Assembly (NCBI GenBank): GCA_000310025.1
Contig: FN649737.1
Location: forward strand, 2,638,000 to 2,701,999
Length of the DNA: 64,000 bases
Source of the DNA: Ectocarpus siliculosus
Lineage: Eukaryota > Sar > Phaeophyceae > Ectocarpales > Ectocarpaceae
Direction: 5' to 3'
Part shown: piece after piece, positions 17,301-20,623 of the stretch
Numbering within the stretch: the stretch's first letter is position 1
Layout of the letters: each line of letters starts with the position of its first letter
Position numbers and translations under genes: made by a program
Notes under the pieces: model-generated
What the model was told of the DNA's origin: nothing
Seen by the model: only the letters and a program-made list of their open reading frames with translations
Database searches by the model: none

Positions 17301-20300
17301 CCGAAAAAACACCGTACCCTTGTACCACACCAGAGAACGGAGAAGGCAGACAGCAGGCTTTTCCTTTGTGGGCGCCGGTCGGGGTGATGCTGATGGGGAG
17401 TGAAATACAGACACCAAACCCGCACGGAGAGCAGACACTACGTTGTCGTTCAATCTCCTACACGGCCTGGACGGCATACTACTGTTTTGTTTTTTGTTTC
17501 CCGCTCCATCGCTTAAAGTATGGTAACTATTGAACGCTCTCGTTTTGTTGCTATTGAACGCGTCGCCTCTTTTACGCAACCCAACCCACGTGCGCTCTCC
17601 TTTTTTTCCGCCAGGAAGCACTCGCGAAGGCGCTGGCTCTCGACGGCACCGACATGGACGGCCGCACTCTTTCGGTGCAGAGGTCCCTGCCTCGGGGGTC
17701 CCGCTCGGTCAAGGGGGGCTCCGCAGCATCAGCTACAGCAGCAACGCCCCCCCCACCGCCGCCGGCAGCAGCAGCGGCAGGGGAAGGGGGGGCGAAGGAA
17801 GCGGAGGAATCCGACATCACCGCGAAGAAGAGCAAGAAAAAGAAGAAAAAGAAGGCCGAGGGGGAGGTGGTCGTTGCGGCGAGCGGGATCAAGTGGCCGG
17901 CGCACCCCACAACGGTGTTCGTGCGCGGGCTCGGGCTGTCGGCGACGTCGCAGGACCTGAGGGAGGCGTTCGTCGGGGTCGGGCCGATGGTCGAGGCTAG
18001 GGTAGTCGAGGACAAGAGGACCCGCGAGACGAAGGTGAGGAAAAAAAAACACAAGGGGGGGCATGGCGTGTGGACTCAAAGTTGCTTTCGTTTATACCTG
18101 TAGGCCAGGAGAAACGAATCGCTGGTGTTTTCCAGCCGTAAATTGGGGTGGCCTTGGGTGTCGCAAGGAAACCGGAGGTATCGTTTCTACCTAGGCGAGG
18201 AGGAACAAATCGCTGGCGTTGTCGAGTCGTAATGAAATATGATGGCCTTGGTTGCGGCAAGGATAAGGGGAGGTGTTGGTCGATGCTGCGGGTGGCGGAA
18301 GACTGGGTAGGGGAAATTGAGAGGCACAACGGTTAACACGATGAAGAAACTTGGGAGGTTTCTTTGGAGATTTTGGTGCTGTGGACGGCTCTTCTGCGGA
18401 AAGTAAATTTCACGAAAAGGCTCGCCGTTCATCAGTTCAGTAGCAACCGACTACTTCGCACACCTCGTTACGACTGTTGGAGTCCGATAGCCTTTTTTTT
18501 TTTAGCCTTGCCGCCCTGATATGCCTCAAGCACCCTCCCTCCTTCGTTTTGACTACCTGCTTTTCAGGGATACGGACTGGTTCAGTTCGAGGAAGGGGAG
18601 GCGGTTGAAAAGGCTCTTGCTCTCGACGGCACGAGCATGGTGAGAGCTGCTGTATATCTGTCAGTGCCGGACCGTGCTGTGGCTACTTGCTGTAGGTTCA
18701 GGTCTCGACGACCGGGCGAGGCCTACCGTTTCCACTTTTTTCTGCGGCTGGCAGTGATTTTGCCGTTGTTTGGCGGTCATATCGTCGTTGAACCTCATCC
18801 ACTATGGCCTAACAACTTTTGCAAGCACGGCAAGCCTCACGTTTTCCCCTGGGCGCTTGTTCGCGGTTCACACGTTCGCGGGACGGCCCTAGTAAGCCAT
18901 TCTCGCGTGAAATGTATTACACCGTCAAGGGATCATAATCTTTTCCGCGTAACCCCGGATCGGGACTTTCAGATTGGAGACGCCAGGCCGCAACCGTGAA
19001 CCTGCGAGCGTAGATGAGATGGCAACTAATCGATTTTTTTCAAAAGGGTTTCCGCCCTTCGTGATGCATGTGCATACGTGCGTGTAATGGGTCAGCTTCT
19101 TGCGGGGCTTGTCTCGATGTTCGGAAAACCTGTGGTATGGAGTTTCCAAGGATATCGGATTTGTACCCATGCATCCGGCCGGCTGTCGTGGTGTTCCTGT
19201 GCGAGCAGGGGTAAGTGTTACTGTTTTCTCTTCACCGAGGTTTGTATGCTGGCCAATGTTGTGGCCGAACGCCACAAGCTAATTCCTGTTGGCCTTCGCT
19301 CACTCCGCATCTCTTGTCCCCCCTCCCACTAACTCCCCTCCGCTTCGTACGTCGTTGTCCCACCCCCCTTCGCCTTTTTATTTCGCGAAACAAACCGTAC
19401 CCTTCATCCAACGATATGGTGCCGCCAACAGTGCGGCGGCACCGCACAGATAACTCGCTCCCGTCACCCGGCGGTCGTCGCCGCTCCGGCCCCCGCTCCC
19501 GCCTCCTCCGATGGTGTGGAAACCCCTAGCGGAGACGGAGACGCTGCCCCCGCCGACGGCAAGGGCAGGAGAGCGAATGATTGGGACTGCCCCAGCCCGG
19601 ACTGCGACAACGTCTGCTTCTCTTTCCGGACAAAGTGCAACCGCTGCGGGATGGGCAAGGACGGCACGCCGCCCCCGAAGGAGTTGCAGCAGGGTGGCGG
19701 CGGCAATAGCGTGGTGGCGACGCAGCACAGGCCGAGGCTTCAGCTCGGGTGAGATTGAAAAACGCATGGACAGATGACTGGCGTGCGTTTCAGTGGACAA
19801 CATGGAGCTCTCGAATTGTATGTTAGATGGGAATGAATGCGAATGAAGCCATTCGCAGCTGTCGTCCGTCTGCAAGGAAGCGAGCACAAGATGCCGAACA
19901 CCCTTAGCAGGATGCAGAGCACCCTCCAGTTTTTTTTTTTTTTTTTAGTCTTCACTTCAAATTAGCGCTCACAGCACTAGTGGCGTTTACTCCAACCCGT
20001 GGTCACACAGAGGAGCCCCTCTCTACCCTCCCCTCCTGCGGTACTTTGCCTACGGTTTTTAATGCGAGAAGAGTTCAGCACTCTCTTCCCTCTGTGTACA
20101 CACGAACTAGCGCTATCCACTAGGCCCGGAGCGGAAGCGAGAGAAAAACTCACTTTGCAAGAAAATCTCGCTTGCGCCGGGATTCGAACCCCTGACCTGA
20201 CCTCTAGAAGGTTTCGAGGATACCAACTAGACCACCGGGGCGACCGGCATTCCTCCATGCGACTCGCCGAATACCTCACGGCGCTTCGCGCTTGGTGATG

Positions 20301-20623
20301 TGCGAGCCTGGTCCGGTGAATCCCCGGCGTGCTCCGTCCCGGCTTTGTAGGGCTGCGAGGTCACTGGTCTAACGACTACGGCATGCAAAACATGAGTTGT
20401 CCCCCCCTTATTCCCCCTGAACGGCAGGGCCGCAATCCGACCGCGGGCTCTTCGCAACGAGCGATCCACCAACGGCGCTGCTCGTAAACCCGTGGGTGGC
20501 GGGGCAAGGACGGCTGTTGCTGCGGAGTCGAAAGGTGGTGCCCGTGAGGATGGGGAGTCATCGAAGCCTCCCCCTTCCAAGAAATCAAACGCTGACTTCC
20601 GGGCTCTGTTCAACGGGAAGTAG
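5396..20623 (+). CDS. SART3: SART3/Prp24-like U4/U6 snRNP recycling factor with RanBP2 zinc finger
   Basis: SART3/Prp24 proteins bind U6 snRNA and help reanneal U4/U6 after splicing, in the nucleus. Exons: 5396-5586, 6822-7002, 8165-8349, 9109-9256, 9742-9828, 10616-10765, 11307-11510, 11982-12176, 12859-12978, 13882-14037, 15027-15082, 15320-15437, 15913-16294, 16980-17056, 17615-18034, 18568-18639, 19151-19210 (tentative), 19450-19748 and 20428-20623. All join in phase to 1098 residues (human SART3 is 963). HAT-type helical repeats fill residues 1-560, for example FPLGPELWQEWI and LVSWEEAIKWERR. Exon 11 ends in EEEIGSLEDW, matching the family's last HAT segment. Lysine-rich stretches suit nuclear import. 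RRM1 (about 697-775) has NLPFS and KGLGYVTF; RRM2 (849 onward) has VFVRGL and KGYGLVQF. A RanBP2-type finger follows at about 977-1003. The extreme C-terminus SNADFRALFNGK matches the conserved LSm-binding tail. Exons 11, 12 and 17 are the least certain. Confidence 0.92.
8385..8670. repeat. Long CT microsatellite in SART3 intron 3
   Basis: An imperfect CT/TGTC tract contains an uninterrupted (CT)n run at about 8538-8658. It follows the exon 3 donor (8350) by a few dozen bases. Its long serine/leucine open frames are microsatellite artefacts. Confidence 0.95.
9369..9421 (-). mobile_element. Remnant of the GTGGGTATACCCA foldback-element terminus
   Basis: Read on the minus strand this begins CCTTTGGGAAAT and reaches a GGGTATACCCAC palindrome about 30 bases in. 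The terminal repeat of the complete foldback element at 51211-52561 has the same layout (AAAGGGAAAT, then GTGGGTATACCCAC). Only one end is recognisable here, in SART3 intron 4, so it is probably a solo or decayed copy. Confidence 0.55.
12250..12412 (-). repeat. Dispersed repeat family R1, reverse copy
   Basis: On the minus strand this matches the 30153-30376 copy, with GGCGCTTCGCGCTTGGTGAT, then GAGCCTGGTCCGGTGAGAAC, then GGTCAATAGTCC and a GAGTACACCCCCC-like end. It lies in SART3 intron 8. Confidence 0.8.
13024..13113 (+). repeat. Dispersed repeat family R3 copy
   Basis: Matches 33624-33716: GGACTCATACGTTTTGCATG, then GTTAGACCATTGAGCACAC, then GCATTGTTCCCGCGTGACCG. It lies in SART3 intron 9. 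The TTAGACCATTGA core resembles part of family R1, so the two families may be related. Confidence 0.75.
13518..13595 (+). repeat. Dispersed repeat family R2 copy
   Basis: Carries ATGTTGGATAAAGCATACAA then GGGGAAGTTGGGTTCGGG, shared with 14284-14350 (plus) and, in reverse, with 4247-4336 and 31163-31236. It lies in SART3 intron 9. Confidence 0.75.
14073..14262 (+). repeat. Dispersed repeat family R1 copy after a poly-C tract
   Basis: Starts at CAGGATGCAGCGCACCCT and runs through GGCGCTTCGCGCTTGGTCAT and GGCATGCACGACTATGAGTA into C-rich sequence. It lies in SART3 intron 10, next to a poly-C tract at about 14047-14067. A shorter copy at 14545-14650 follows in the same intron. Confidence 0.8.
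14284..14350 (+). repeat. Dispersed repeat family R2 copy between two R1 copies
   Basis: Carries ACATGTTGAATAAAGCATGT then GGGGGAGTTGGGTTTGGGAT. It sits between the R1 copies at 14073-14262 and 14545-14650, so this intron is a small repeat cluster. Confidence 0.75.
14545..14650 (+). repeat. Truncated R1 copy
   Basis: Begins in the middle of the family near CTGGGCCGGCGAACACCCGG and ends with CATGAGTACCCCCC. The first half of the R1 sequence is missing. Confidence 0.7.
19579..19665 (+). other. RanBP2-type zinc finger encoded in SART3 exon 18
   Basis: The exon encodes DWDCPSPDCDNVCFSFRTKC followed by NRCG. This fits the W-x-C...C...C-x2-C layout of RanBP2-type fingers, which bind single-stranded RNA or ubiquitin. 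It lies between RRM2 and the C-terminal LSm-binding tail, and the exon is in phase on both sides. Human SART3 and yeast Prp24 have no such domain at this place. Confidence 0.85.
19854..20412 (+). repeat. R1 copy split by a SINE insertion
   Basis: The R1 start (CGCAGCTGTCGTCCGTCTGC through AGCAGGATGCAGAGCACCCT) stops near 19928. The sequence then resumes at 20252 (TCCATGCGACTCGCCGAATA) exactly where the uninterrupted 30153-30376 copy continues. The 323 bases between are the SINE listed separately. All of this is in the last SART3 intron (19749-20427). Confidence 0.85.
19929..20251 (-). mobile_element. tRNA-derived SINE
   Basis: On the minus strand it starts with a tRNA-like head (about 20170-20246): box A TGGTCTAGTTGG, then box B GGTTCGAATCC about 40 bases on. 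These are the internal RNA polymerase III promoter elements. The acceptor ends do not pair, so it is not a functional tRNA. The 3' end on that strand is a long poly-A, seen as poly-T from 19930 on the plus strand. Both edges carry CCTCCA (19923-19928 and 20252-20257), a likely target-site duplication. No second copy was recognised in the window. Confidence 0.8.

What the first reader, a model, noticed from the sequence alone, without database searches (positions are those of the whole stretch)
19450..20623. SART3 with a RanBP2 zinc finger before the LSm-binding tail
The exon chain places a clear RanBP2-type finger (DWDCPSPDCDNVC...CNRCG) between RRM2 and the conserved C-terminal SNADF motif. 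Human SART3 and yeast Prp24 do not have it. RanBP2 fingers in splicing factors such as ZRANB2 bind single-stranded RNA, so this could be an extra U6 or pre-mRNA contact specific to the lineage.
Basis: partly seen in the sequence, partly recalled or inferred. Interest (0 to 1): 0.75.

Follow-up and report, generated by a model that had tools for sequence, protein, structure and literature searches.

The report
SART3 splicing protein with FUS-like finger
A gene for the splicing-machinery recycling protein SART3 carries, just before its tail, an extra small zinc finger of the kind with which the human protein FUS grips RNA; this could be an added handle on splicing RNA, but binding has not been shown.

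Summary
An 18-exon gene (5396-20623, +) encodes a stop-free 1084-aa SART3: HAT repeats (human SART3, E 5.4e-42), two RRMs, C-terminal SNADF. The motif occurs once in the window (0.02 expected) and matches the FUS finger at E 6.7e-8. Skipping exon 17 truncates RRM2 and puts SNADF out of frame. "Clear RanBP2 finger" needs qualifying: Pfam gives 10.4 bits (cut-off 27), mostly because the usual Asn at finger position 16 is Cys. The published RNA contacts D4, N14, R20 and N24 are kept and position 19 is aromatic, as in FUS/EWS, so GGU/GGG binding is the best prediction. This genome's U6 has one GGU, both Gs predicted unpaired, across the loop from ACAGAGA; 17 of 400 shuffles do as well and the test was post hoc. 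An RRM-plus-finger grip on U6 is testable, not shown. No other eukaryote could be searched, so lineage specificity is open. New variant of a known kind.

The parts
5396..20623 (+). SART3 gene, 18 exons: 5396-5586, 6822-7002, 8165-8349, 9109-9256, 9742-9828, 10616-10765, 11307-11510, 11982-12176, 12859-12978, 13882-14037, 15027-15082, 15320-15437, 15913-16294, 16980-17056, 17615-18034, 18568-18639, 19432-19748, 20428-20623
   Evidence: hand-chained GT-AG exons, all in phase, 1084 aa without stop; no transcript evidence
5396..15437 (+). exons 1-12: N-terminal HAT-repeat part (597 aa)
   Evidence: human SART3 5jpz E 5.4e-42; HAT_PRP39_N 6e-14
16216..17686 (+). RRM1 (exons 13-15, spliced)
   Evidence: RRM_1 in two stretches; human SART3 RRM1 7xx8 E 1e-9 among 141 matches, other RRM proteins scoring higher
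17909..19470 (+). RRM2 (exons 15-17, spliced); its last strand is coded by exon 17
   Evidence: RRM_1, best stretch aa 851-916; alignment to RRM1
19432..19748 (+). exon 17: end of RRM2, linker, finger, and the stretch before the last exon (aa 915-1020)
   Evidence: splice-site scores 4.6 and 8.8, phases; only strong match in the genome is itself, next E 0.006
19576..19650 (+). FUS-type RanBP2-like zinc finger, NDWDCPSPDCDNVCFSFRTKCNRCG (aa 963-987)
   Evidence: FUS E 6.7e-8, ZRANB2 1.2e-5; shuffle control
20585..20620 (+). SNADFRALFNGK, Lsm-interaction motif (aa 1073-1084)
   Evidence: PF05391 E 0.012 on exon 18 alone, 0.15 on the whole protein, both below its cut-off

Best explanation
This is the SART3 (p110/Prp24-type) U6 recycling factor of this organism, with one RanBP2-type zinc finger of the FUS/EWS subgroup placed about 35 residues after RRM2. 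Shown here: the gene, its reading frame and the finger's resemblance. Inferred: the finger folds on zinc and binds single-stranded GG(U/G), extending the grip of RRM2 as the FUS finger can extend that of its RRM. Most likely target, inferred: U6 (or U4/U6) during recycling, the RRMs holding the ACAGAGA strand and the finger the GAGAGGU strand across the same loop, so that the loop is held open or marked before U4 pairs.
For: SART3 identity; frame and splice sites; finger match and controls; contact residues D4, N14, R20, N24 kept, aromatic at 19 (alignment read). Precedents, passages seen: FUS RRM plus finger bind one U1 fragment with a GGU; RBM5 RRM1 and finger sandwich GG RNA, finger adding 7-fold; Tip110/SART3 RRMs bind U6 nt 34-46. 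The one U6 match here has GGU where Rfam's consensus has aaU, Gs unpaired.
Against: No binding data. Pfam score far below cut-off and Asn16 is Cys. 251 of 400 shuffles of U6 hold a GGU, 17 of 400 one with both Gs unpaired, 36 of 400 allowing GGG; U93 and the ACA of ACAGAGA are paired in the predicted fold. Both U4 GGUs are predicted paired. On assembled U1 snRNP the FUS finger did not find its site. Human SART3 with both RRMs deleted still promoted splicing in vitro. No relatives to show conservation.
Confidence: 0.45

Rival explanations
1. The finger binds GGU-type RNA, but in pre-mRNA 5' splice sites (AG|GU), tethering SART3 or the U4/U6 particle to substrate, as proposed for ZRANB2.
For: 15 of 17 donors of this gene read G|GT; PMC6384913 argues that such fingers may read 5' splice sites (passage); Tip110/SART3 was found in spliceosomes with pre-spliced and spliced RNA (passage of PMC4511435).
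Against: SART3 is described mainly as a U6 and U4/U6 annealing factor (passages). A 5' splice site would be contested by U1 and U6 (general knowledge).
Confidence: 0.2
2. The finger does not bind RNA: it binds a protein, or is a decaying or purely structural remnant.
For: Cys in place of Asn16, which the FUS and ZRANB2 fingers and the fingers in all 8 loci fetched have; Pfam 10.4 bits. Some fingers of this kind bind ubiquitin and not RNA (ZRANB1, passage); Ran binding by others is recalled.
Against: D4, N14, R20 and N24 are kept together; the non-RNA-binding ZRANB1-B has Lys and Ser at 19 and 20, this one Phe and Arg. All four zinc cysteines and the Trp are intact.
Confidence: 0.25
3. Gene-model artefact: the finger stretch is intronic or belongs to another gene.
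For: No transcript was available. One GT inside the exon (19514) scores like a real donor (8.5). Low Pfam score.
Against: The 21 frame-keeping GT..AG pairs inside exon 17 that remove the finger use donors 19474, 19477 and 19516, scoring -6.4, -7.9 and -1.3 against 3.2-12.1 for the model's donors (matrix trained on these donors). 19514 is not among them, and joining it straight to exon 18 leaves 82 nt, out of phase (arithmetic). Exon 17 gives RRM2 its end and SNADF its frame. The overlapping antisense frame has no Pfam match at E 1.
Confidence: 0.05

Closest known systems
Human SART3 / p110 / Tip110 (and yeast Prp24)
   Same: HAT repeats, two RRMs and a C-terminal Lsm-interaction motif in the same order; yeast Prp24 shares the U6 role
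   Different: HAT, RRM and LID only are named in the legend seen; here a finger lies between RRM2 and the motif. That Prp24 lacks HAT repeats and has four RRMs is recalled
FUS/EWS/TAF15 (FET) RanBP2 finger
   Same: nearest solved finger sequence (6.7e-8), C-x4-C spacing, aromatic at 19, and an RRM ahead of the finger
   Different: FET proteins have RGG regions and no HAT or Lsm-interaction parts (partly recalled; RGG and ZnF); Asn16 is Cys here
ZRANB2, RBM5 and RBM10 fingers
   Same: GG-reading single-stranded RNA fingers in splicing proteins; RBM5 and RBM10 have RRM1 just before the finger
   Different: ZRANB2 has Arg at 19, aromatic here; RBM5 linker is 7 residues, here about 35

Membership tests
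SART3 family | N-terminal HAT repeats related to SART3 | tested here: met
   human SART3 5jpz 5.4e-42, PRP39 only 7.3e-5
SART3 family | two RRMs after the HAT part | tested here: met
   RRM_1, two stretches, 1.2e-30
SART3 family | C-terminal Lsm-interaction motif | tested here: inconclusive
   SNADFRALFNGK at the last residues, PF05391 E 0.012-0.15, below cut-off
SART3 family | U6 binding and U4/U6 annealing | not testable with these tools
   needs protein
RanBP2-type zinc finger (PF00641) | Trp and four Cys in the spacing W-x-C-x(2-4)-C-x10-C-x2-C | tested here: met
   W-x-C-x4-C-x10-C-x2-C at 19582-19647
RanBP2-type zinc finger (PF00641) | curated Pfam score of 27 bits | tested here: not met
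   7.8 and 10.4 bits; with Asn at 16 the score would be 25.8, still below
RanBP2-type zinc finger (PF00641) | Asn at finger position 16 | tested here: not met
   Cys; FUS falls from 42.5 to 29.5 bits with the same exchange
RNA-binding FUS/EWS-type fingers | D4, N14, R20, N24 and an aromatic residue at 19 | tested here: met
   alignment read in the numbering of PMC6384913; mapping is mine
RNA-binding FUS/EWS-type fingers | measured binding to GGU RNA | not testable with these tools
   needs protein
RNA-binding FUS/EWS-type fingers | zinc-bound RanBP2 fold | tested here: inconclusive
   AlphaFold without alignment: pLDDT 48.9 (exon) and 64.1 (finger); too poor

The most novel reading that the evidence does not exclude
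A core U6 chaperone and its snRNA changed together: in this lineage SART3 gained a GG-reading finger that standard profile searches miss, while U6 acquired an unpaired GAGAGG(U) across the loop from ACAGAGA, giving a two-strand clamp on the loop that later receives the 5' splice site, which is itself usually G|GU.
Probability: 0.12. Interest if true: 0.8.

Novelty: new variant of a known kind. Interest (0 to 1): 0.5.

Why it matters
SART3/Prp24 is the U6 recycling chaperone, described in the papers seen with HAT, RRM and Lsm-interaction parts only. A SART3 that gained a GG-reading finger would show how a core splicing chaperone can add an RNA contact, and it gives a direct test: does U6 of the same species carry a matching site? 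The Cys at position 16 drops the finger below Pfam's cut-off, so similar cases in other genomes may have gone unnoticed.

Tried and rejected
Relatives: one genome-contig scan with the 386-aa C-terminal part (113 pattern matches, none confirmed) and one viral-contig scan with exon 17 (15, none confirmed). Both collections are poor places for eukaryotic genes; I left the further scans unused (1 of 2 and 1 of 8 spent). Phylogenetic spread stays untested.

Origin of the finger within the genome: besides itself, one search gave six weak matches (E 0.006-0.7). In one search I looked for the finger pattern in the eight loci fetched (8 of its 18 matches; all eight hold C-x2-C fingers with Asn at 16) and in those six loci (none holds a convincing finger). 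No source gene was found.

Structure: AlphaFold on exon 17 (pLDDT 48.9) and on the 38-aa finger (64.1) was too poor; no fold search was run.

My first look for GGU in U6 read the wrong strand and found none; one search corrected it. The finger pattern used was miswritten and was redone. ARAGORN found no tRNA gene in the window.

Literature: eight searches ran. SART3 was a term in 7, 8, 36, 37 and 60, Prp24 in 7 and 49. Several lists were cut (20 of 293, 20 of 29, 30 of 61, 20 of 50 shown). I saw no listing about a SART3 with a RanBP2 finger; that is no proof of absence. PMC9887622 mentions SART3 once, without a finger; PMC545797 has no mention of Prp24, p110 or RanBP. No supplement was read.

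Full report
What was checked.

Gene model. Reading the + strand and chaining GT-AG exons by hand gave 18 exons from 5396 to 20623, all in phase, translating to 1084 residues without a stop. The N-terminal 597 residues match human SART3 HAT structures at E 5.4e-42 in two stretches. Pfam finds HAT_PRP39_N (6e-14), two RRM stretches (1.2e-30), and Lsm_interact weakly at the very end (0.012 on exon 18 alone, 0.15 on the whole protein, both below its cut-off). Human SART3 RRM1 is among 141 PDB sequences matched by the RRM part (E 1e-9); other RRM proteins score higher. The HAT part makes this SART3.

The finger exon. Exon 17 is 19432-19748. Its acceptor scores 4.6 (model acceptors 3.6-10.6) and its donor 8.8 (model donors 3.2-12.1), with matrices trained on this same gene, so they are a consistency check only. 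Exon 16 ends in phase 0 and exon 18 needs phase 2, so skipping exon 17 puts SNADF out of frame. Inside exon 17, 21 GT..AG pairs could remove the finger in frame, all with donors scoring -1.3 to -7.9. The one good in-exon donor (19514, 8.5) is not among them. Exon 17 ends in RPRLQL and exon 18 continues AAIRPRAL after a Gly codon that spans the junction; this resembles the human stretch RTQLSLLPRAL, which I recall and did not test.

More than chance. The pattern W.C(2-4)C(10)C..C occurs once in six frames; 100 order-2 Markov sequences average 0.02, maximum 1. Against FUS, ZRANB2-ZF1 and ZRANB2-ZF2, 0 of 2000 shuffles reach the observed scores. In the genome, exon 17 has one full match, itself; the next of seven matches has E 0.006.

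What kind of finger. The nearest solved sequence is FUS (6.7e-8), then ZRANB2 (1.2e-5). Pfam gives 7.8 bits on the exon and 10.4 on the finger, cut-off 27; the Pfam search of this genome lists 18 matches without it. The main cause is position 16, Asn in the FUS and ZRANB2 fingers and in the fingers of the 8 loci fetched, Cys here. For scoring only, Asn there gives 25.8 bits, still under the cut-off, and Cys in FUS lowers FUS from 42.5 to 29.5. In the numbering of PMC6384913 (passages), D4 affects affinity, N14 and N24 read the third base, R19 and R20 read the guanines, and Trp replaces R19 in FUS and EWS without loss of GGU binding. My mapping gives D4, N14, F17, F19, R20, N24 here. I predict GGU/GGG binding of the FUS type. 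What position 16 does I do not know; it is not among the contacts named in the passages I saw.

How it may work. FUS contacts stem-loop 3 of U1 snRNA with its RRM and, on naked U1 RNA and in disease models, a GGU by the Sm site with its finger; on the assembled U1 snRNP the finger did not find its site (passages of PMC7733473). RBM5 RRM1 and finger sandwich a GG RNA, the finger improving affinity 7-fold (passages of PMC10349855). Human Tip110/SART3 recognises a sequence identical to U6 nucleotides 34-46, and deleting its RRMs cut U6 binding by about 80%, although the deleted protein still promoted splicing in vitro (passages of PMC4511435). The single U6 match in this genome (80.9 bits) contains GAUACAGAGAAG and CGAGAGGUGUAUCG. 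In the plain predicted fold, bases 34-40 (CGAUACA) pair with 93-99 (UGUAUCG), and across the loop GAGAA (41-45) faces unpaired GAGAGG (87-92); G91 and G92 are unpaired with probability 1.0, U93 with 0.01. Rfam's consensus has aa where this U6 has GG. The caution weighs as much: 251 of 400 dinucleotide shuffles have some GGU, 17 of 400 one with both Gs unpaired, 36 of 400 if GGG is allowed, and I looked for the site after knowing the finger. Both GGUs of the single U4 match are predicted paired. A pre-mRNA target stays open: 15 of 17 donors in this gene are G|GT.

Against known systems. Human, yeast and worm SART3/Prp24 are labelled with HAT, RRM and Lsm-interaction domains (legend and passage of PMC4381082; figure not seen). 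I saw no listing of a SART3 with a RanBP2 finger in the held open-access papers (with Prp24 and algal terms), a limited library with cut lists. Because no other eukaryote could be searched (searches found nothing), I cannot say whether this is one species, a lineage or a widely missed feature.

Verdict. Real, and a new variant of a known kind: a known protein with a known kind of domain in a place not described in what I read. The function is a reasoned prediction.

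Noticed in passing
window 20117-20242, - strand (intron 17 of SART3): A tRNA-like sequence that is repeated in the genome: 40 matches listed including itself, the other 39 at 95-98% identity (40 of 1165 candidates scored). ARAGORN calls no tRNA gene here. Looks like a young tRNA-derived SINE.
   Followed up: partly
window 14164-14251 and 14573-14660 (intron 10): Two 88-base copies, 75% identical, of another repeat; by eye similar stretches lie near 12300 and 20275-20390.
   Followed up: no
G000 contig C6, 3277371-3281579 (L004-L007): Six RanBP2-type finger matches about 800 bases apart in one open frame of 2101 aa; the fingers read with Ala-Glu-Ala where RNA-binding ones have Arg, so possibly a Nup-like or other protein-binding array.
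   Followed up: no
L016 (genome C30:2097910-2098015, -): The only U6 match listed in this genome has GAGAGGUGUAUCG near its 3' end, GG where Rfam's consensus has aa.
   Followed up: partly
window about 8400-8670 (intron 3): A long CT microsatellite inside a SART3 intron (read).
   Followed up: no
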